Origin: Candidatus Pacearchaeota archaeon
GTDB taxonomy: Archaea > Nanoarchaeota > Nanoarchaeia > Pacearchaeales > GW2011-AR1
Assembly (NCBI GenBank): GCA_002686195.1
Contig: NZAS01000161.1
Location: forward strand, 1 to 11,636
DNA length: 11,636 nt
Reading direction: 5' to 3'
Shown here: piece after piece, positions 442 through 11,636 of the stretch
Numbering within the stretch: position 1 is the stretch's first letter
Layout of the letters: each line of letters begins with the position of its first letter
Made by a program: the position numbers and the translations under genes
The notes under the pieces: generated by a model
The model's input: the letters and a program-made list of their open reading frames with translations, nothing else
What the model was told of the DNA's origin: nothing
Databases searched by the model: none

Positions 442-864
442 ATGGCAAGAAAAAAATCTAAGGCCACGGCAGCAGCAATAAAGCATGGCTACAGATCGGG
501 TTTTGAACACAAGGTTTCTAAACAATTGACTGAAAATAAAATTAACTTTGGTTATGAGGTGACTCAAATAAATTATATCAAACCAGAAACCCAACATAAG
601 TATACGGTTGATTTTACACTACCAAATGGTATATTAGTAGAAACAAAGGGTCGTTGGGTATTAGAAGATAGAAAGAAACACCTACTAATTAAGAAACAAC
701 ACCCAGAGTTAGATATAAGACTTGTTTTTCAAAATCCAAAAGGAAAGATAAGAAAGGGTAGTAATACAACTTATGCTAATTTTTGCGACAAACACGGGAT
801 ACTCTGGGCAGACAAAGAAGTGCCTTTAGCTTGGTTAACTAAAAAACGTTCAAAAATGTTTTAG
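442..864 (+). CDS. T7 gp3-type endonuclease I, Holliday-junction resolvase
   Basis: This 140-residue protein matches the phage T7 endonuclease I family along almost its whole length (T7 gp3 is 149 residues). In that family a domain-swapped dimer cuts four-way junctions and other branched DNA and thereby debranches replication products before packaging. The catalytic set is present with the T7 spacing: Glu22 (in SGFEHKVSKQL), Asp57 (in YTVDFTLPNG), Glu67 and Lys69 (in VETKGRW), matching T7 Glu20, Asp55, Glu65 and Lys67. Family hallmarks DRKKHLLIKKQHPELDIRLVF, NTTYANFCDKHGI and WADKEVPLAWL follow. The Lys/Arg-rich N-terminus and C-terminal tail (KKRSKMF) suit DNA binding. The ATG at 442 is preceded by AGGA (432-435), which overlaps the upstream stop codon, suggesting translational coupling. 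It is followed after 30 bases by a primase gene. The fold and catalytic residues are clear, so the assignment is very secure. Confidence 0.96.
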   Translation: MARKKSKATAAAIKHGYRSGFEHKVSKQLTENKINFGYEVTQINYIKPETQHKYTVDFTLPNGILVETKGRWVLEDRKKHLLIKKQHPELDIRLVFQNPKGKIRKGSNTTYANFCDKHGILWADKEVPLAWLTKKRSKMF

Positions 865-894
865 TATTTGAAAAATTTTTATTATATTAACAAT
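865..894 (+). promoter_or_regulatory. AT-only leader before primase, possible weak promoter
   Basis: The 30 bases between the endonuclease stop and the primase ATG are almost purely A and T and contain TTGAAA (868-873) and TATATT (883-888). These resemble sigma70 -35 and -10 boxes but are only 9 bases apart, too close for a normal promoter. There is no Shine-Dalgarno sequence. The stretch may be an A/T-rich unstructured translation leader, or a promoter using only a -10-like element. Support is weak. Confidence 0.2.
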
Positions 895-1818
895 ATGAAT
901 AAATTAAGGTTAGTTCAATTGTTGGAATCTGTTCTTTCCAAGGGCAATTTTAACGAACAAAGCAATGAGATAACTTTCCACTGTCCATTTTGCAAACATC
1001 ACAAAAAGAAATTAAATATAAATTTAATTAGTCAAAAATGGCATTGCTGGGTGTGTGGTGTTGGTGGTTACACCATTTTTAACTTGTTTAAGAAACTAAA
1101 GGTGGAAAACAGCTATTATGTTAGTTTATCTAAAATAATAGGAAAAGATTTATCAATAATAAAAAATTATGATAAAAAATATGAAACACCAACTTTACCA
1201 AAAGAATTCACACCACTAGCATCAGCTAGATTAAAAAATCCAGAAACAAAAAATGCCCTATTATACTTAAGAAACAGAAATATAACTTCACAGGATATAC
1301 TAAAATATAACATAGGATATTGTGATGGGGGTAAATATGGAGGAATGATAATTGTACCAAGTTATGATAAGGATGGCAATCTAAATTTCTTTACAGGTAG
1401 AAGCTATTATGATGTAGCATTCAAACACTTAAATCCAGTAGTATCTAAAGATATAATAGGATTTGAATTATTTATAAATTGGAATGAGCCAATAACAATA
1501 GTTGAAGGAGCATTCGATGCAATTGCAGTAAAAAGAAATGCAATACCATTATTTGGAAAGCTTATATTGGATAAATTAAAATTAAAAATATTAGAAAAAA
1601 ATGTTAGAAGGATAAACATAGCATTGGATAAAGATGCAATGAAAATAGCAATAGAAATGGCAGAATATTTTATGTCTAATGGCATAATAATACATTTTGT
1701 GGAATTGCCTGAAAAAGACCCTTCAGAGTTAGGTTTTAAAAACATAACAACACTATTAAAGGAAGTAAAAAAGATGACACCTAAAAATCTTTTGGAGTAT
1801 AAGATAAATGAATATTGA
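895..1818 (+). CDS. DNA primase with zinc finger and TOPRIM domain
   Basis: This 307-residue protein is a compact primase of the DnaG/T4 gp61/T7 gp4 N-terminal type, which makes short RNA primers for lagging-strand synthesis. Residues 30-54 form a zinc-binding module with Cys30-x2-Cys33 (HCPFCKHH) and Cys51-x2-Cys54 (HCWVCGVGG). The TOPRIM domain lies at about 195-270, with the catalytic glutamate Glu204 in TIVEGAFDA and the metal-binding pair Asp245 and Asp247 in ALDKDA. The protein stops soon after TOPRIM, with no room for a helicase domain, so a separate replicative helicase would be needed (T4 gp41-like, not in this window). The ATG at 895 is preferred over the in-frame TTG at 868, because the domain starts directly after it. 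Neither site has a clear Shine-Dalgarno sequence. The 3' end overlaps the next gene by 11 bases. Primase identity is secure; equating it with T4 gp61 is an inference. Confidence 0.9.
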   Translation: MNKLRLVQLLESVLSKGNFNEQSNEITFHCPFCKHHKKKLNINLISQKWHCWVCGVGGYTIFNLFKKLKVENSYYVSLSKIIGKDLSIIKNYDKKYETPTLPKEFTPLASARLKNPETKNALLYLRNRNITSQDILKYNIGYCDGGKYGGMIIVPSYDKDGNLNFFTGRSYYDVAFKHLNPVVSKDIIGFELFINWNEPITIVEGAFDAIAVKRNAIPLFGKLILDKLKLKILEKNVRRINIALDKDAMKIAIEMAEYFMSNGIIIHFVELPEKDPSELGFKNITTLLKEVKKMTPKNLLEYKINEY

Positions 1819-4800
1819 TGTTGGATTTGAAAAGACAGAAAAAATACTGCATGTTGCAGATACCCATATTAGAAATTTTAAGAGACACAAAGAATATAGA
1901 CAAATATTTAGAAAACTATATAAGGAAGCCAGGCTTCTTCCCAAAAACAGCTTAATATATATTGCTGGTGATGTAATTCATACAAAAACAGATATATCTC
2001 CAGAACTAGTTCAAATTGTTAGTGAATTCTTAAATAGGCTAGCAAACATTAGGCCGACAATAGTTATAGCTGGAAATCATGATGCAAATCTAAATAATAA
2101 GTCTAGATTAGATTCTTTGTCGCCAATAATAGAAAATTTAGCAAATAAAAATTTACATTATCTTAAAGATAGCGGAATATATAGCATTGCTGATGTCGAT
2201 TTTATAGTTTATTCTATATTTGATGAAAAGGAAAACTGGCCCACTGCTAAAGATTCAAAGGCAAAAACAAGGATAGGAGTATTCCACGGTGCAGTAAATA
2301 ATTCTAAGACAGATGCTGGGTATACGGTAAGAGATGAAAATCTTCCATTAAAAACATTTAATGGATGTCATATGGTAATGTTGGGTGACATACATAAATA
2401 CCAACACCTTAATAAGGCAGAGACCATTGCTTATGCGGGTAGCCTCATTCAACAAAATTTTGGCGAAGCTTTTGAGAATCATGGATATGTTTTATGGGAT
2501 ATTCCAACCAGAAAGGGAGAATTTTTTAATATACCAAATGACTATGGATACTATACGTTAAGGGTAAAAGATGGAATACTTCCAAATATTGATGACATAC
2601 CAAAATATCCAAGACTAAGGTTCATAACTGAAAATACAACTCAGGCGCAAGTAAAGGAAATGTTAATTGAAATTAGAAAAAAATGCAAGGTACATGATTT
2701 TATTGCTATAAAAGGAGATAAATTATCTAATCTTTCAAATAATTCTAGAGGAAGCATAGAAATAACCAAGGATATACGAGATTCTGAATACCAAAATAAA
2801 TTGATAATAGAACATTTGGAAAGAAATTTTCCAGTTATAGAAGATTCTATACTTAAGAGAATTAGAAATATAAATAGAGACCTAAATAAACTTTTACCAG
2901 ATGTAGAAGTTGGAAGAAATATATATTGGAAACCAAAGAAATTTGAATTTTCAAATATGTTTAGCTATGGGGAAAATAATGTTATAGATTTTAATAATAT
3001 GAAAGGGGCCGTTGGAATATTTGCTCCAAACCATGCAGGTAAATCTGCAATACTTGATGCGCTATCTTATTGTATTTTTGATAAGTGTTCTAGAACAAAA
3101 ATGGCGGCCGCTGTAATAAATAATAAGAAAAATAATTTTAAGTGTAAACTAAATTTTGAGATAGATGGGGTAGACTATTTTATAGAAAGAAGAGGAAAAA
3201 GAAAAAAGGATGGCGGAGCACGAGTTGATGTTGATTTTTGGATGATGGGTGAAGATGGAAACCCAATATCTCTAAATGGAGACCAAAGGGTATATACAAA
3301 TAAAAATATCAGGGGTTATTTGGGCAAATATGATGACTTTGCATTAACGGCCTTATCTGTACAAAATAACAACACAGGATTTATAGATAAAACTCAAGTT
3401 GAGAAAAAAGATTCCTTAGCTCAATTTTTAGACATAAGTGTTTTTGAAGAGCTATACCATCATGCAAATGAAGAAATAAAAGATGTACAGGCATTATTAA
3501 GAGATTTCAAAAATATAGATTTTTCTCAAAATCTTCATGAATCAAATATAGATTTAAAAGACCTAAAGAAAAAATATTTTGACGTAGATAAAGAAAAAAC
3601 AAAAATACTAAATATAGAAAAAACTACAAATAAAAAAATTATTGAATATACATCTAAAATAATATCATTGGACCCTGATGTGCCAGAGAAGCCTGAACCA
3701 CTACAGGAAGAACTAAAAACAATAACAAAATATATACCTGTTCTAAAATCCAAACTCAAAAAATATTCTGAATATACTAAAGAAAATAGAATAGAATTTT
3801 TAGATATTAATAAGAAATTAAAAAAATATAATAGAAAAAACATTGAGCAAAACTATAAATTTTATGAGGAAAAAACTAAGGAATTAACACAAGTAAATCA
3901 TAATATTGATATGATGAAAATAACCGTTAAGAATAAATTAGAAATAGTTAATCAATTACATAATCATGAATATGACCCTGATTGCGAATTCTGCAGAAAT
4001 AATTCATTTGTCCAATCAGCAGAAAAAGCTAGGGAAGACTTACCAAAATTAAAACTTGAAACAGAAAAATTATTAGAAGCTAAAAAACATTTAGAATTAG
4101 AATTGAATAATTTATCTTCTGTGGTAGAACAATTAAAAGACATAAATAATTTAGATAAAAAACTTTCTCTAATTACGCAGTACCAAGGAGAAATAAAGAT
4201 AAAAACGGTACAAAGAGAATCAGATATATCTTCAAAAGAAATTAGAAAACACGCTGTTGAGAAATTGATAGAAAAATATCACCAAAATAAACGTTCTATA
4301 TTAGCAAATGAAAAGGTTAGAGAAAAAATAACCATAAAAGAAGATGAGCTAGATATAACAAAACAAAATCTTTCAGAAATAAATTCTAAATTACAAACTT
4401 CATATAGTGATATTAGTGTTTGTCAAAAAACAATAGAAAACATATTGGAATCTATAGAGAGAGCGCATGACCTTGAAGAAAGGGTAAAGGCATATGAATA
4501 TTATCTAAATGCAATTCAAAGAGATGGAGTACCATACGAGCTAATATCAGAAATATTACCATACGTAGAAGAAGAGGTTAATTTAATACTTTCCCAAATT
4601 TCAGATTTTTCTATAAACTTTGAAACTGATGGAAGAAATATAAATACATTTATTGTTTATAGCGATAAAGAAAGATGGGCTTTAGAAATGACATCTGGAA
4701 TGGAAAAATTTGTAAGCTCTCTTGCTATTCGAGTAGCTTTAATAACTGTATCAAATCTACCACGCCCAAACTTTTTAGCAATTGATGAAGGATTTGGAAA

Positions 4801-4963
4801 TTTAGATTCTGGAAATCTAAATTCTATTTTTTCATTATTTGACTATCTAAAATTAAATTTTAATTTCATAATAGTAATATCCCATATAGATATAATGAAA
4901 GATGCAACAGATAATCTTTTAGAGATATCCCAGGCTAAAGGCAACAGTCACGTATTGTATTAA
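1808..4963 (+). CDS. Fused Mre11-Rad50 (SbcD-SbcC, T4 gp47-gp46 type) nuclease-ATPase
   Basis: This 1051-residue protein joins two subunits that are normally separate. Residues 1 to about 240 are an Mre11/gp47-type calcineurin-like phosphoesterase: Asp18-Thr-His20, Asp55 (AGDVIH), Asn90-His91 (GNHD), His160 (FHG) and Asp194/His196 (GDIHK). A capping and linker region follows to about 370. The Rad50/gp46 ATPase starts near 375 (KKFEFSNMFSYGE). It has Walker A at 406-413 (APNHAGKS), long charged coiled coils at about 560-720 and 735-900, a CEFC zinc hook at 726-729, a signature motif at 963-964 (TSGMEKF), Walker B Asp993-Glu994 (FLAIDEG), a D-loop (GNLDSG) and H-loop His1026. Such complexes resect and trim DNA ends for recombination-dependent replication. 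The two halves match T4 gp47 (339 residues) and gp46 (560) in order and roughly in size. No ATG lies between residue 284 and the ATPase domain, so a separate Rad50 start is unlikely. GGAG at 1794-1797 is the probable ribosome site, and the start overlaps the primase end. Confidence 0.95.
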   Translation: MNIDVGFEKTEKILHVADTHIRNFKRHKEYRQIFRKLYKEARLLPKNSLIYIAGDVIHTKTDISPELVQIVSEFLNRLANIRPTIVIAGNHDANLNNKSRLDSLSPIIENLANKNLHYLKDSGIYSIADVDFIVYSIFDEKENWPTAKDSKAKTRIGVFHGAVNNSKTDAGYTVRDENLPLKTFNGCHMVMLGDIHKYQHLNKAETIAYAGSLIQQNFGEAFENHGYVLWDIPTRKGEFFNIPNDYGYYTLRVKDGILPNIDDIPKYPRLRFITENTTQAQVKEMLIEIRKKCKVHDFIAIKGDKLSNLSNNSRGSIEITKDIRDSEYQNKLIIEHLERNFPVIEDSILKRIRNINRDLNKLLPDVEVGRNIYWKPKKFEFSNMFSYGENNVIDFNNMKGAVGIFAPNHAGKSAILDALSYCIFDKCSRTKMAAAVINNKKNNFKCKLNFEIDGVDYFIERRGKRKKDGGARVDVDFWMMGEDGNPISLNGDQRVYTNKNIRGYLGKYDDFALTALSVQNNNTGFIDKTQVEKKDSLAQFLDISVFEELYHHANEEIKDVQALLRDFKNIDFSQNLHESNIDLKDLKKKYFDVDKEKTKILNIEKTTNKKIIEYTSKIISLDPDVPEKPEPLQEELKTITKYIPVLKSKLKKYSEYTKENRIEFLDINKKLKKYNRKNIEQNYKFYEEKTKELTQVNHNIDMMKITVKNKLEIVNQLHNHEYDPDCEFCRNNSFVQSAEKAREDLPKLKLETEKLLEAKKHLELELNNLSSVVEQLKDINNLDKKLSLITQYQGEIKIKTVQRESDISSKEIRKHAVEKLIEKYHQNKRSILANEKVREKITIKEDELDITKQNLSEINSKLQTSYSDISVCQKTIENILESIERAHDLEERVKAYEYYLNAIQRDGVPYELISEILPYVEEEVNLILSQISDFSINFETDGRNINTFIVYSDKERWALEMTSGMEKFVSSLAIRVALITVSNLPRPNFLAIDEGFGNLDSGNLNSIFSLFDYLKLNFNFIIVISHIDIMKDATDNLLEISQAKGNSHVLY

Positions 4964-5013: not shown

Positions 5014-8000
5014 ATGCCAAAAATATTACGTTTTCAAGAACCGTTTAGGTACGAAGCACTTTCATATAGAGGATTAGATAAAATACAAGTTTTTGTTGTT
5101 GACGAAAGCTCAGATTCTTATGATTATTTTGGCTTCACAAGAGTACCTTCAGAATTAACAGCCGGCAGAAATTTATTGTCCCTAACCGGAACAAAAAATC
5201 TTGTCATTGGTTCAGAAATTGCCATAGAAGTATTGGATGCAAATGGAAACCTGGTTCCAGTTAGAACCTATGACCATATTGGAGATGGAAACGAAAGAGT
5301 ATTTTCTATAGAGATAGATGAAAGGGTGCCTGAAGGAGATGCTTTAATAACGGTTGTAGGAGTATCAAAAGGAAGGGTAGCATATGATAAACATAGGCAA
5401 AGAGATATTTCAGAACAGGTACCACCAGAGTATTCTGGTAGGTGGAATATACGATGGCAAAAAAGATTAAATTGCTATCCAAGACGTAGAAATGACTCCG
5501 AAATAGTATTTTTTCCAAATCCAGATATTATTGTAGAGGAAATAAAGCGCCCATATTTCAAATTACATTACGATGAAGATTTAATTTCTTCTTATTCTAA
5601 TTTAACAAATAATACCGCTTCATTCTACACATTATGCTCTACTGCATCATTAGGGCTACAAAACACATCTGCTAGTTTGAAGTATGAGGTAAAAGGAGGA
5701 AAGTATTATATAATAGCCGACAGTAATCCTGATTTTGGTGGATTTTCAAACGATATGGTTGGTGGCACTGTATTTTTTCCAACGCCAGAAAGTCCATACC
5801 CTTCGTCATACGCTGGTCCCTATGCATTACCATTATATAATGAGCTTGAAGATGGAGATGGCCAAGGAAATTTAGATACTAGTTCGGCATTAACACAATA
5901 TACAAACCGCGGAGCATATCATACATATATAATGGAAAGAATATCTCCACAGCAGTTAAGAGTAAATAGTCCACATACTACATTTCAAGGAATAGGAAGA
6001 GCGAACCAAAGAGAAGTATTTCATGATAAATTTGCTTTCAGCGATTTCAGATTGGATTGGGCTCAATCACCAGTATCAAGAAGCAATGTACTTGCCAGCG
6101 GAAGTAATGAGTTTAACACATCTTATGCAAAAATAACCTTTAGAGATTTGACCCCATTGGTTGGTGATGTGACAAGAATAAAAACATATATAAGAAATGA
6201 CCAAACAGTAAATGATTATCATTTAGTTGGTGATAATCCTGTATTTGCACAAGAGTTATTGATACAATCTGAGTCATTATGGACTAGATTCCCAGCTGGA
6301 GATTTTTCTAAATTTGGTGTCAGTGAATCCTTAGCTACATATTGGACGGCATCTACAAATGCATTGGGAACAATTGCAGGTCCAACTTTAGTTGCCTTCA
6401 AAATGGATACAACGTCACTTATTAACCCAATAGTTGAATCTTTACAGATTGGTGATTCAACAGCAATTTCATCGCAAGCGCTAGATGGAACAGACTTTTG
6501 GAACGTTGACTGTTTAACCCCAGTGGTGTTTGATGCCGATAAACATTATGAAGTAAGTTTTAAGTCGTTTGCAGTTAACACGAATGGAACAACACCAGTA
6601 ATTAAAGTATACCTGTTTGGAAATGCAATTATTGATTCAGGAGAAAAGATAGGCAAACATGTCGGTACCATACAAGAAGTCGCAACTGGTTATTCAGGTT
6701 CTAGAGAAATAATACAGGAAGAAGACCCACTAGATAACTTCAAATTCAAAGGGGTAAAGTTTACGTTTAAGGCAGATGCAACAGAGTATGGATATTTAAG
6801 ATTTAAGGTTGAACAAGGTTTATGGTATATTGCAGATGTATCAGTTAAGCCATATGACCAATTTGGATATACTCCACATACATTTGAGACCATAATACCT
6901 ACAACAAAGGGAAATGTTGCAGAAAAAGATGCATTAGATTTTAGGTTTGAATTCTATAATGATGACCATAGAAAAGCTGCCCATACAACTGAATTAAAAA
7001 ATATAGAGTTCGATAATGAATATACCTTTACAGCCACAAATATTATTGTCACTAGTGCAAGCATAGGCAACTTTTTTGGTGCAACACCAGTTGGAGATAA
7101 TGATTGGGTAAGAGCACAATCGATAGCTGGACAGCTAGCCAATGAACAACCAGCATTAACAGAAAGTATATACCATAGTGGTTCTGTTGGAATTGGAGAG
7201 TTTGCAACGTCAACGGTGGATTATCCATTACATATTAAAAAGATTGCCGGACAGGGAAATGCAACAATAAAATTATCCTCATATTCTTCCTCAATATTAC
7301 ACCTAGCATCAGATGTTGGAGGTACAGGCACACCAACAAGTAAAAGCGCCCACATTCTTTTCGACCATAATAATGCTGCAACTTCTTCAATAATAGGATA
7401 TAACGACCAAACTGGTCGCGATCCCGGAGGTGCCGTCATGGATGGAGCCACATTAGGAAGCTTTGTACTTCATGAAAGGCATGGAAAGGTGATGAGTTTG
7501 GGTGTAGGAGGTTATGCCAGATTTCATTTGGTGACTGGAAAATCCAACACATTTGACAATCAGGGCTCCCATGCAACATTTATAGGGTGGAAGAATCCAT
7601 TGCCCGGATCATTTGATTATGAGCTTGATGTCTCTGGTAGTGAAATAATTAGGAGTGGAACATTATATTTACCAAATGCAAATACAGAGGCCTCACCCCC
7701 ATATATATTAGGATTGAATGCAACTAATGCAACTGTCAAGACGACAACTGCACAGTTTCTTGCTGGTGATGAAGATTGGTACATTCAATCAACATACATA
7801 ACACAGTCAAGGGTTGGAGGTTCAACAGGAAGAACAGTTTGGATAGGGGATGGATCGGATATTACTGGATTAACGCCGGCAACATACATATTTCAAGTAT
7901 CTCAGAGTGGTGCAACGTCAAAAATAAGATTTCAAGGAATACCCTCATCTTCACTACAAACATTTAATATTTTGGTGGTTAATCCAGCAACTGGAGACGT

Positions 8001-10242
8001 TTACACAACAGAATCTGCAGCAGGTAGTATAGGGGGAGGCGGTGGTGATGATGAAGATTGGCACGTATCAGGTTCTTCATCTCCTCCAACTAGTATAAAC
8101 GATAGTATTTTCACATCTGGCAGTGTACAGGTAGGATGGTTCACCAATACTGCTGGCACAACCCATGCGCCAACAAACCTAGCCAAACCGGCCCTGCTTG
8201 TTAGGGGTAGAATAGAACAAGATTGGGAGAATGCTTATTCTGCAGAATCAACTATTATAGGTCTAGAAGCGGCTCCAAGTTATTCTCGTTTTGATAAAGT
8301 AGATGGAGACAATATAGGTGGATTTGGTGGTGGTTATGGAAACACAGCTGTGGGTTATCAGGCTGGTCGTGGATTTAAGTTTGAACATACCTCATGGAAT
8401 ACTGCAATTGGATGGAAAGCAATTGGCGGAGGCACACCCTCATCTGCAGATGGAGACTATAATATTGGAATAGGCGCAGAAACACTGTATGCTCTGAATG
8501 GCGGAAATAATAACGTTGCAATAGGATATAGAGCATTATATGATCTGACCGGAACCTACGACAACATTGCAATAGGATATCATGCTGGCTATAAAATAAC
8601 TTCTGGCCCCAGAAATATTATGATAGGCAGAAATACAGGAGCCACCAATCTTACAACAGGAGGACATAACATATTTTTAGGATACAATGCAGGAGCAAAT
8701 TCTGATGCAAACATATCTTCATCTCTTCAGATTCATAGTTCCAATGTAGCTACAACCAACCCACTTATAACGGGAAGCTTTTCAATGGGAACCGTAAGGA
8801 TAAATACTCAGTTAGGCCTTAACGTAGACCCAGCCTACAGGTTTGATATAGCCCAGGACCCTGATGACGCAAACCCTGTTAGGGTACTTTCCTTCAATGA
8901 GGGAGGCGGCAAAAATTTAGTATGGAATACGACTACAGGAATAATATATTTTGACCCTGATAGTGGTCACCAAGATGGGATTAACAACATGGAGAACTTG
9001 CAGCTCACGAATTCTCCCGGAATACTGTTTTCATCAGGAAGTATGACATTTTACAGCTCATCTGTCACACAATCCACAGGAATATTCCATACCCAATCCG
9101 CAATATTCAAGATGGAAAAGGATATAGCAAATGATACTTCTTTTATAATATCAGGATCTAGGGATGTAAAACTATATTTTTCAGGTTCTGGTAAATTAGG
9201 ATTCGGAACAACAAATCCAGAAAGAGATTTTGATATAAGAGCAGATGATTTTGGGATTAGAAAGAAAACCAAAATGGCCGGAATCAGAATGAATGCAGAT
9301 GGTAATTTTGAATCATATAATAATGATACAGCTGCACAATTGACAGGTAGTGAACTAATCATGACATATACAAGGGGCTCAACCAACTCTGCTCAAGATG
9401 ATGGTGATGACGATTTTTCTGACTCCTTAGAAGTACAACAAAACGATGTATTAGGTTCTATAAGATGGGTGGTAAATTCAGGCTCTATAGATGAAAGAGC
9501 AGGAGGAGCAGTAGCTAGTATTCAAACACTTGCAGCTGAAACTCAAGTAGTTGGAGCAGGCGTAGTTGGAAAAATGTTATTCCAAGTAGCTGGCGAGGCC
9601 AATTCTGCGCCAATCACAGCGTTAACAATGGATGGACCAAATTTATTAAGTACATTTGCTCATGCTGTAACCTTTGAAAGTAATCTAACTGCAAGTGGAA
9701 ATATAAGTTCAAGTGGAACAGTAATAGCAGAACAACTAACTTCAACTGATGATATAACAGCAGCAGGTGATATATCTGCAACAGGTACTATAAGAGGAAA
9801 AGAAATCCACATATTAAATACTTCATTCAAAGATGATATAGGCACTGATGAAGTATATGTTCCTTGGAATAGTACATCCGAGACTGTAAATGTTGCAAAC
9901 TTAAATACACCATTTATAGTTCCTTGTTCAGGAAGATTACTAAAAATAATATATAGATCAAATGGAAATAATACTGCAGCAACAGCTACATGGAGACTTA
10001 ATCAGGTATCTGAAGGACAACCACAAACAGGCGGAGGTCTAACTGTATTAGGAACAGCAACATGTATAGGCCCTCCCAATTCTGGTTCATCTACAGTTGA
10101 CTTTACAGGAGTATCTACAAATGAATTTGATGCTAATGATATGATTTTAGTTTCCATACAACATGATGTAGATGTAGGAGGTGAAATCAGTTATTTTGTA
10201 ACTGCAGTGTTTGAAATGGATTATAATACTTTAGGATATTAA
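5014..10242 (+). CDS. Giant modular tail fibre or virion appendage protein (1742 residues)
   Basis: This very long protein has the modular, Gly/Ser/Thr/Asn-rich build of a phage fibre. Residues 1-190 look like a baseplate or particle attachment domain, including RWNIRWQKRLNCYPRRRNDS and SEIVFFPNPDIIVEEIKRP. Residues about 430-615 form a beta-rich segment that may be a carbohydrate-binding-like module (inference). From about 690 the protein is repetitive: three Asp-rich 'DxDW' modules (Trp698, Trp922, Trp1016), 'SGSVxxG' strands (722-730, 1035-1043) and LGFGTTNPERDFDI near 1395, in the style of the 'IGTTxP.xLHV' repeats of fibre shafts. Residues 1110-1227 hold seven NxAIGY-type units, probably a beta-roll. 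TASGNIS repeats near 1560-1590 lead to a separate C-terminal domain (about 1600-1742) that is probably exposed. No signal peptide, membrane segment, enzymatic motif or endosialidase chaperone tail is evident. The start has AGGAG at 9 bases. Host recognition is the likely role. Confidence 0.85.
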   Translation: MPKILRFQEPFRYEALSYRGLDKIQVFVVDESSDSYDYFGFTRVPSELTAGRNLLSLTGTKNLVIGSEIAIEVLDANGNLVPVRTYDHIGDGNERVFSIEIDERVPEGDALITVVGVSKGRVAYDKHRQRDISEQVPPEYSGRWNIRWQKRLNCYPRRRNDSEIVFFPNPDIIVEEIKRPYFKLHYDEDLISSYSNLTNNTASFYTLCSTASLGLQNTSASLKYEVKGGKYYIIADSNPDFGGFSNDMVGGTVFFPTPESPYPSSYAGPYALPLYNELEDGDGQGNLDTSSALTQYTNRGAYHTYIMERISPQQLRVNSPHTTFQGIGRANQREVFHDKFAFSDFRLDWAQSPVSRSNVLASGSNEFNTSYAKITFRDLTPLVGDVTRIKTYIRNDQTVNDYHLVGDNPVFAQELLIQSESLWTRFPAGDFSKFGVSESLATYWTASTNALGTIAGPTLVAFKMDTTSLINPIVESLQIGDSTAISSQALDGTDFWNVDCLTPVVFDADKHYEVSFKSFAVNTNGTTPVIKVYLFGNAIIDSGEKIGKHVGTIQEVATGYSGSREIIQEEDPLDNFKFKGVKFTFKADATEYGYLRFKVEQGLWYIADVSVKPYDQFGYTPHTFETIIPTTKGNVAEKDALDFRFEFYNDDHRKAAHTTELKNIEFDNEYTFTATNIIVTSASIGNFFGATPVGDNDWVRAQSIAGQLANEQPALTESIYHSGSVGIGEFATSTVDYPLHIKKIAGQGNATIKLSSYSSSILHLASDVGGTGTPTSKSAHILFDHNNAATSSIIGYNDQTGRDPGGAVMDGATLGSFVLHERHGKVMSLGVGGYARFHLVTGKSNTFDNQGSHATFIGWKNPLPGSFDYELDVSGSEIIRSGTLYLPNANTEASPPYILGLNATNATVKTTTAQFLAGDEDWYIQSTYITQSRVGGSTGRTVWIGDGSDITGLTPATYIFQVSQSGATSKIRFQGIPSSSLQTFNILVVNPATGDVYTTESAAGSIGGGGGDDEDWHVSGSSSPPTSINDSIFTSGSVQVGWFTNTAGTTHAPTNLAKPALLVRGRIEQDWENAYSAESTIIGLEAAPSYSRFDKVDGDNIGGFGGGYGNTAVGYQAGRGFKFEHTSWNTAIGWKAIGGGTPSSADGDYNIGIGAETLYALNGGNNNVAIGYRALYDLTGTYDNIAIGYHAGYKITSGPRNIMIGRNTGATNLTTGGHNIFLGYNAGANSDANISSSLQIHSSNVATTNPLITGSFSMGTVRINTQLGLNVDPAYRFDIAQDPDDANPVRVLSFNEGGGKNLVWNTTTGIIYFDPDSGHQDGINNMENLQLTNSPGILFSSGSMTFYSSSVTQSTGIFHTQSAIFKMEKDIANDTSFIISGSRDVKLYFSGSGKLGFGTTNPERDFDIRADDFGIRKKTKMAGIRMNADGNFESYNNDTAAQLTGSELIMTYTRGSTNSAQDDGDDDFSDSLEVQQNDVLGSIRWVVNSGSIDERAGGAVASIQTLAAETQVVGAGVVGKMLFQVAGEANSAPITALTMDGPNLLSTFAHAVTFESNLTASGNISSSGTVIAEQLTSTDDITAAGDISATGTIRGKEIHILNTSFKDDIGTDEVYVPWNSTSETVNVANLNTPFIVPCSGRLLKIIYRSNGNNTAATATWRLNQVSEGQPQTGGGLTVLGTATCIGPPNSGSSTVDFTGVSTNEFDANDMILVSIQHDVDVGGEISYFVTAVFEMDYNTLGY
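7093..8142 (+). repeat. Three diverged Asp-Trp fibre modules
   Basis: Within the large fibre gene, three segments open with an acidic DxDW motif: GDNDWVRAQS (7093 onward), GDEDWYIQST (7765 onward) and DDEDWHVSGS (8047 onward). The first and third run on through a Ser/Thr-rich stretch to the near-identical strand cores SGSVGIGEF (ending 7203) and SGSVQVGWF (ending 8142). The third is preceded by a poly-glycine linker (IGGGGGDD). The copies are 224 and 94 residues apart and are diverged at the DNA level, so they look like old duplicated shaft or hinge modules and not recent repeats. Confidence 0.6.
8341..8694 (+). repeat. Seven-unit NxAIGY beta-roll array in the fibre
   Basis: Seven related units start at bases 8341 (NTAVGYQAG), 8398 (NTAIGWKAI), 8461 (NIGIGAETL), 8512 (NVAIGYRAL), 8563 (NIAIGYHAG), 8614 (NIMIGRNTG) and 8668 (NIFLGYNAG). 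Spacing is 19, 21, 17, 17, 17 and 18 residues. The Asn-x-Ala-Ile-Gly core resembles the left-handed parallel beta-roll repeats of YadA-type adhesin heads (NSVAIG), which are trimeric and bind surfaces. Here it probably makes a rigid trimeric receptor-contact or shaft segment. The units are clear by eye; the fold is inferred. Confidence 0.75.
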
Positions 10243-11237: not shown

Positions 11238-11636
11238 ATGGCTTTACCAGACCTAACAGGCCAAAACATTCAAGATAGCTATCAGAGAGTAGTACAAACT
11301 GATGGCACAAATACCTTTGACGGAACAGGTAGTATATTGCCAATATCTTTTGATGGAGATGATATAATAGTACCTGGCGCTGTTCGCGCTCACTCATACA
11401 TAGTATCTGAAAGTACTGTTGTTGTATCATCTGGTTCTACTGCATTTGGTGATTCAACTGATGACACACATACATTCACAGGCCACATAACAGCCTCAGG
11501 TAATATAAGTGCAAGTGGTGATATAAAAGGAGTAAATGGTAGATTTACAGGAAAAGTTGGTATAGGAACAACTGCTCCTGGTGCTGAACTTGTTGTACAG
11601 GACGGTGAAGTATGGGCAGGAACAGGAGCAACAAAA
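11238..11636 (+). CDS. Second tail fibre or appendage protein, N-terminal part (3' partial)
   Basis: The gene starts at the ATG at 11238, with AGGGG (11225-11229) 8 bases upstream, and is open through the right edge, giving 133 visible residues. It begins MALPDLTGQNIQDSYQRV followed by LQ-like VVQTDGTNTFDGTGS, then SYIVSESTVVVSSGSTAFGD, TFTGHITASGNISASGDI and KVGIGTTAPGAELVV. The 'TASGNISASGDI' and 'VGIGTTxPxAxLxV' patterns are typical fibre-shaft repeats, the latter often found ahead of chaperone-of-endosialidase tails. Both also occur in diverged form in the large fibre encoded upstream. The N-terminal LTGQNIQDSYQR segment is probably an attachment or oligomerisation region. A fibre role is well supported by composition and repeats; the receptor and the full length are outside the window. 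Confidence 0.8.
   Translation, partial: MALPDLTGQNIQDSYQRVVQTDGTNTFDGTGSILPISFDGDDIIVPGAVRAHSYIVSESTVVVSSGSTAFGDSTDDTHTFTGHITASGNISASGDIKGVNGRFTGKVGIGTTAPGAELVVQDGEVWAGTGATK

What the first reader, a model, noticed from the sequence alone, without database searches (positions are those of the whole stretch)
1808..4963. Single-chain Mre11-Rad50 (gp47-gp46) fusion in a phage
The nuclease and the SMC-like ATPase of the end-processing complex are normally two genes (gp47/gp46 in T4, SbcD/SbcC in bacteria). Here all phosphoesterase motifs, a cap and linker, both Walker motifs, the signature, the H-loop and a CxxC zinc hook lie in one 1051-residue frame. No ATG occurs between residue 284 and the ATPase domain. 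A fusion fixes a 1:1 ratio and tethers the nuclease through residues about 240-375, which could change how ATP state controls nuclease access.
Basis: partly seen in the sequence, partly recalled or inferred. Interest (0 to 1): 0.75.

Follow-up and report, generated by a model that had tools for sequence, protein, structure and literature searches.

The report
Known viral Mre11-Rad50 fusion, new member
This phage gene really does join a DNA-end-cutting nuclease and its ATP-driven clamp in one protein, but such joined proteins in viruses were described in 2011, so this is a good clear example of a known kind.

Summary
Window 1808-4963 is one intact 1051-codon frame: an Mre11/SbcD-type nuclease (residues 12-198), cap, helix-loop-helix, short linker, then a Rad50/SbcC-type ATPase with CxxC hook. 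It is no frameshift artefact: 113 of the 120 listed database homologues cover the whole chain, and none of 241 related loci was seen cut at the domain junction, 6 being undecided or lacking one half. The linker stretch 360-373 has 14 residues in 144 of 146 aligned proteins.

It is not new as a kind. Yoshida and colleagues (2011, PMC3175470) described such fusions in Mimivirus R555, a Bacillus phage and aquatic viral metagenomes, beside phage primases and T7-like endonucleases as here. The window shares R555's two reported motif changes (GDxxH, GDIH); its best five structure matches are giant-virus proteins of 969-1389 aa.

Most likely role: T4 gp46/gp47-like end resection and tethering, with nuclease and ATPase held 1:1. 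Untested. The most interesting by-product is a phage lineage whose gene is cut inside the nuclease instead.

The parts
442..864 (+). T7 gp3-like endonuclease I (junction resolvase) gene, upstream neighbour
   Evidence: PF05367 8.3e-57, PHROG 945 3.3e-50
868..1818 (+). DnaG/Toprim-type primase gene, overlaps the fusion gene by 11 bases (listed start TTG 868; an ATG in the same frame at 895 is an alternative)
   Evidence: PHROG 47 9.8e-39; Pfam and NCBIfam DnaG/Toprim matches all below their curated cutoffs; a primase ORF lies next to the gene on its 5' side (87 bases of overlap to 1208 bases apart) in 233 of the 235 loci scored fused
1808..4963 (+). Single-chain Mre11-Rad50 (SbcD-SbcC) fusion gene, 1051 aa
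1841..2401 (+). Nuclease (calcineurin-like phosphoesterase) domain, residues 12-198
   Evidence: PF00149
1967..1981 (+). GDxxH motif, residues 54-58 (one of the two changes also reported for Mimivirus R555)
   Evidence: H58 in 145 of 146 aligned rows; paper text
2384..2395 (+). GDIH motif V, residues 193-196, Asp in place of the canonical His
   Evidence: D194 in 146 of 146 aligned rows; Asp in 14 of 15 fused and 0 of 9 separate Mre11; R555 has the same change
2426..2713 (+). Capping domain, about residues 207-302
   Evidence: strand-rich region of the AlphaFold2 model; limits are my reading
2783..2887 (+). Helix-loop-helix (Rad50-binding) region, residues 326-360
   Evidence: two helices 326-340 and 346-360, block pLDDT 79-91
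2888..2926 (+). Inter-domain linker, residues 361-373
   Evidence: low pLDDT between last HLH helix and first ATPase strand; the stretch 360-373 is 14 residues in 144 of 146 rows, 13 and 15 in one each
2927..3427 (+). ATPase N-lobe, about residues 374-540, Walker A at 3023-3046
   Evidence: PF13476, model, K412 in 146 of 146
3437..4516 (+). Coiled coil arms (about 544-719 and 733-903) with CxxC zinc hook at residues 726-729 (3983-3994)
   Evidence: model helices; both Cys in 146 of 146 rows
4691..4885 (+). ATPase C-lobe motifs: signature TSGME (962-966), Walker B and D-loop (989-1000), H-loop H1026

Best explanation
A member of the R555-type viral Mre11/Rad50 fusion family. Two chains probably pair into the usual M2R2 head: the nuclease and cap of each chain are held by the helix-loop-helix at the root of its own (or its partner's) coiled coil, and a linker of about 13 residues then runs into the ATPase N-lobe. 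ATP-driven head engagement and the zinc hook would work as in SbcCD and T4 gp46-gp47, resecting and tethering DNA ends for recombination-dependent replication together with the primase and T7-like resolvase encoded just upstream. Shown: one frame, both domain sets, conserved motifs, conserved linker length, conserved primase neighbour. Inferred: dimer, activity, role.
For: Domain matches; catalytic and ATPase residues conserved across 146 rows, the other 145 being 26-79% identical to the window; 113 of 120 listed homologues cover the whole chain; no break at the junction seen in 241 loci or in 79 partly overlapping ones; primase next to it in 233 of 235 fused loci; HLH and short linker in the model, in line with the 9-12 residue linker that the 2011 paper derived from the T. 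maritima complex; BFVD matches to proteins of Tupanvirus, Harvfovirus, Yasminevirus and others with alignments over 1000 columns; PDB matches to Mre11-Rad50(-Nbs1) and SbcCD; GDxxH and GDIH as the paper describes for R555.
Against: No activity was measured. Motif V is GDIH and the signature SGME, so activity cannot be assumed equal to the canonical enzymes. The model has pTM 0.40 and stretches under pLDDT 50 (94-99, 303-318, 367-371, 495-505, 517-534, 997-999), so the placing of nuclease against ATPase is not established. R555 itself was not aligned; its shared changes are read from the paper. H20 is Gln in 13 of 146 rows. Among named phage records the fused relatives are few: 11 of 50,697 matched, 2 over at least 80% of the query.
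Confidence: 0.88

Rival explanations
1. The single frame is a sequencing or assembly artefact of two adjacent genes.
For: It can look like this elsewhere: Listeria phage LMTA-57 has a single 1009-aa product where A511 has two genes, and its matching stretch is one base shorter (3030 against 3031 bases).
Against: 145 distinct fused ORFs of 1000 aa or more by a BLAST criterion, 151 by a motif criterion that also took in later loci, with near-constant linker length; no junction break seen in 241 loci.
Confidence: 0.02
2. The fused chain is made but works as two proteins, through proteolysis in the linker or an internal start that yields free Rad50.
For: The linker has low pLDDT; ATG at codon 285 and TTG at 332 and 337 exist in frame.
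Against: No ATG, GTG or TTG lies between 337 and 384, so no internal product would begin at the ATPase edge; one from M384 would lack the first ATPase strand (374-382). The linker's length is nearly constant.
Confidence: 0.08
3. A fused but catalytically altered enzyme: an ATP-dependent DNA end tether or structure-specific nuclease, with the Asp at motif V and SGME signature marking a shifted chemistry.
For: D194 and M965 are the same in 146 of 146 rows (two of the scans that fetched them used SGME patterns); all 9 separate Mre11 compared have His at motif V.
Against: The other metal ligands are nearly all kept; Asp is a plausible metal ligand (general knowledge); fused PAU has His at motif V, so the change is not tied strictly to fusion.
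Confidence: 0.15

Closest known systems
Mimivirus R555-type Mre11/Rad50 fusion proteins (Yoshida et al. 2011, PMC3175470, parts 1-3 of 5 read)
   Same: Nuclease-then-ATPase order in one chain, cap and HLH retained, short linker, GDxxH and Asp at the H206 position; aquatic metagenome relatives beside phage primases and T7 gp3-like endonucleases
   Different: R555 is 1351 aa and belongs to an amoeba virus; the window protein is 1051 aa, in a tailed-phage context. The one phage isolate in that paper, Bacillus phage 0305phi8-36, lacked one P-loop segment and the cap/HLH region; the window has both
Long single-chain proteins of jumbo phages pT24, PTm1, MA9V-1, PAU, and of Microcystis phage Mel-JY01
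   Same: Nuclease-to-ATPase single chain; all five lie with the window on the Rad50 tree
   Different: Only Mel-JY01 is close (41.6%). The four jumbo-phage proteins are 1301-1326 aa; of these only MA9V-1 has both Pfam domains above cutoff, and PAU keeps His at motif V
Phage T4 gp47/gp46 and SPO1-like SbcD/SbcC pairs
   Same: Same two activities, gene order nuclease then ATPase
   Different: Two genes; GHxH at motif V
E. coli SbcD/SbcC
   Same: Related sequence and fold
   Different: Two genes, 1048-aa SbcC, GHIH and SGGE motifs

Membership tests
Mre11/SbcD nuclease | Calcineurin-like phosphoesterase domain with metal-binding motifs I-V | tested here: met
   PF00149 above its cutoff; motif residues; motif V is GDIH, not GHxH
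Rad50/SbcC ATPase | Split ABC head, long coiled coil, CxxC hook, Walker A/B, signature, H-loop | tested here: met
   PF13476 above cutoff, model, residues; signature SGME, not SGGE
R555-type Mre11/Rad50 fusion | Both domain sets in one frame, Mre11 first, cap and HLH kept, short linker | tested here: met
R555-type Mre11/Rad50 fusion | GDxxH and Asp at the P. furiosus H206 position | tested here: met
   H58 and D194 against the paper's description
R555-type Mre11/Rad50 fusion | Groups with R555 on a tree | not tested
   R555 sequence was not fetched; the best five structure matches are related giant-virus proteins, which is suggestive only
Mre11-Rad50 complex | ATP-dependent nuclease activity and M2R2 assembly | not testable with these tools
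   needs protein

The most novel reading that the evidence does not exclude
Tailed phages hold a large, obligately single-chain branch of Mre11-Rad50 with a near-constant short tether, an Asp-for-His active site and an SGME signature, locked into a primase operon; within it one lineage has re-divided the machine at a new place, inside the nuclease active-site loop, with conserved tails on both pieces. That would make these phages a natural experiment on which covalent links the machine needs.
Probability: 0.35. Interest if true: 0.5.

Novelty: new member of a known kind. Interest (0 to 1): 0.22.

Why it matters
A compact, 1051-residue single-chain Mre11-Rad50 fixes stoichiometry and could be a convenient system for studying how ATP state gates the nuclease. 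Its family-wide conservation suggests that the fusion is functional and stable, and it supplies full-length phage members where the 2011 paper had only partial metagenome sequences and one incomplete phage isolate.

Tried and rejected
Artefact of two genes: rejected on homologues. Search for relatives cut at the junction, using nuclease-only and ATPase-only alignments so that separate genes could be found: none seen among 241 loci; 5 cut by contig ends, one separate Mre11 without a Rad50 match in its 16.8-kb locus (L091). Genome contigs gave 3 relatives from 31 pattern matches. Fusion as the strict cause of the motif V change: not supported, since PAU is fused with His. Single origin of fusion: the Rad50 tree puts the 15 fused rows on one side of a branch (SH-aLRT 98); the Mre11 tree needs two changes because separate L091 falls inside; long branches, weak forks and sampling by similarity make this weak, and the 2011 paper favoured several fusions. 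Own-genome search: none held. DNA-level (megablast) match of the window to phage records: none. Rfam at gathering thresholds: nothing in the window, L092 or L237. Papers: PMC3175470 parts 1-3 of 5 read; PMC7824862 passages only; all others seen as search listings. Structure of a dimer could not be predicted. In one search the script took the longest ORF of each locus, which was the wrong gene for nine of fifteen; only the six right ones were used.
Full report
What is there. The frame at 1808-4963 is one open reading frame of 1051 codons from ATG to stop. Pfam finds a calcineurin-like phosphoesterase at residues 12-198 and a Rad50-type AAA_23 domain at 382-652, both above their cutoffs; PHROGs match it to the phage SbcD-like and SbcC-like families in consecutive stretches; NCBIfam shows the same halves, all below the curated cutoffs. 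Upstream lie a T7-type endonuclease I (442-864) and a DnaG/Toprim primase (868-1818) that overlaps the fusion gene by 11 bases; downstream lies a 1742-aa gene with a tail-spike match.

Is it real. Of the 120 listed protein homologues (3712 passed the E-value limit), 113 cover the whole query and 7 cover 62-93% (no context is given, so the 7 may be contig fragments). Scans of viral contigs with the whole protein or its alignment and with nuclease-only and ATPase-only alignments, plus genome contigs and three phage records, gave 241 held loci. In one search, 235 were scored as fused, 5 ran off a contig end, and 1 (L091) has a separate 277-aa Mre11. Two of the 235 (L092, L237) are in fact divided inside the nuclease, see below, so 233 are unbroken as far as their contigs run. 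None was seen divided at the domain junction. Several loci overlap the same contigs; by sequence, 145 distinct fused ORFs of 1000 aa or more remain, 26-79% identical to the window. Among named phage records the family is rare: 11 of 50,697 gave a match and 2 covered at least 80% of the query; a search with the more distant L093 protein added Tenacibaculum, Chryseobacterium and Sphingomonas jumbo phages. More distant phages have two genes.

Anatomy. With the window, 146 rows were compared. D18, D55, N90, H160, D194, H196, K412, C726, C729, S963, G964, M965, E966, D993 and E994 are the same in 146 of 146; H58, H91 and Q519 in 145; H1026 in 142 with 4 gaps; H20 in 133 with 13 Gln. The AlphaFold2 model from 25 sequences (mean pLDDT 75.7, pTM 0.40) has two helices at 326-340 and 346-360 where the Rad50-binding helix-loop-helix belongs, a low-confidence stretch, and the first ATPase strand at 374. 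Residues 360-373 are 14 long in 144 of 146 rows. [quoted passage not shown] maritima complex, so the fused chain can fit the ordinary geometry. Foldseek finds as best five viral matches proteins of Tupanvirus (1379 aa, 26% identity), Harvfovirus, Yasminevirus, Terrestrivirus and Catovirus, with pT24 (rank 9), Listeria phage LMTA-57 (11) and PTm1 (15) among phages (TM-scores 0.3-0.5, large rmsd, as the coiled coil is long), and in the PDB Mre11-Rad50-Nbs1, SbcCD and Mre11:Rad50 structures among condensin, Smc5/6, MukBEF, Lamassu and Jet proteins.

What is known. Yoshida, Claverie and Ogata (PMC3175470, parts 1-3 of 5 read) reported that Mimivirus R555 is an Mre11-Rad50 fusion, found twelve more fusions including one in Bacillus phage 0305phi8-36, and found R555 homologues abundant in aquatic metagenomes, enriched in viral fractions, on scaffolds carrying phage-like primases and T7 gp3-like endonucleases. 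They confirmed the fusion itself in only a few long metagenome sequences. They note that R555 has His for the third Asp of the DxH..GDxxD..GNH pattern and Asp for H206. The window has both (GDVIH, GDIH) and the same neighbours. Searches of the held library list that paper first; a search for six fusion phrases found it and one E. coli paper seen only as a listing; a search from 2012 on (20 of 226 shown) listed no later paper on phage fusions by title, which is not proof that none exists. So the kind is known; this is a complete phage member.

Relation to separate pairs. Motif V is GDxH in 14 of 15 fused proteins sampled, and GHxH in the fifteenth (PAU) and in 9 of 9 separate Mre11 proteins. 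On the Rad50 tree the 15 fused rows lie on one side of a branch (98); on the Mre11 tree two changes are needed. This is a small sample drawn mostly by similarity to the window, with ten of the fifteen from one close group.

How it most likely works. By analogy with T4 gp46/gp47 and SbcCD (established knowledge), it resects and tethers DNA ends for recombination-dependent replication. The primase and resolvase neighbours fit that. None of the biochemical steps was tested here.

By-product. In a scan with the downstream piece of L237, 33 of 79 loci have the gene divided just after the GDIHK.Q motif, 42 are unbroken and 4 could not be scored because a piece runs off the contig (the loci are not all distinct contigs and partly repeat the 241). 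Both pieces carry conserved extra ends. A frame of about 300 codons lies between them in 29 of the 33 by the script; in the other 4 none passed its filter, though one of these (L280) has it on inspection. In L237 it overlaps both pieces by 11 bases. In L092, a 484-kb phage record, the division is at the same place but the ORF between has a TnsA-like nuclease match. L092 and L237 fall at different places inside the fused group on the Rad50 tree, among weakly supported forks. This resembles genes-in-pieces cases such as the Aeromonas phage Aeh1 ribonucleotide reductase (recalled, not looked up; one search listed no such Mre11 case among the 8 of 22 papers shown).

Noticed in passing
L256 4361-8598 and 32 further loci; also L237 3833-8055: A phage lineage in which the fused gene is divided inside the nuclease, right after GDIHK.Q, with conserved extra ends on both pieces and a ~300-aa ORF between that has only a weak, sub-cutoff DUF354 match; the Mre11-Rad50 junction stays fused. 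33 of 79 loci.
   Followed up: partly
L092 4974-9199 (LR756508.1, 484 kb phage): Division at the same place but with a TnsA-like nuclease ORF (PF08722, 5.8e-06) between the pieces; possibly an independent insertion at the same loop.
   Followed up: partly
Listeria phages LMTA-57 and LMTA-148 against A511: LMTA-57 is annotated with a single recombination exonuclease where A511 has two genes; its matching stretch is one base shorter, as is that of LMTA-148 (annotated as three features), so this may be a recent fusion or a sequencing error.
   Followed up: no
L091 7995-8828 (Bacteroidales MAG contig, 287 kb): A separate 277-aa Mre11 with GHIH, a primase of the same family upstream, and no Rad50 match in the 16.8-kb locus; falls inside the fused group on the Mre11 tree.
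   Followed up: partly
window 5014-10242 and 11238-11636: A 1742-aa gene with a tail-spike match (PHROG 4636 at residues 1105-1260) and a further gene cut by the window end with similar ISASGDI-type words.
   Followed up: no
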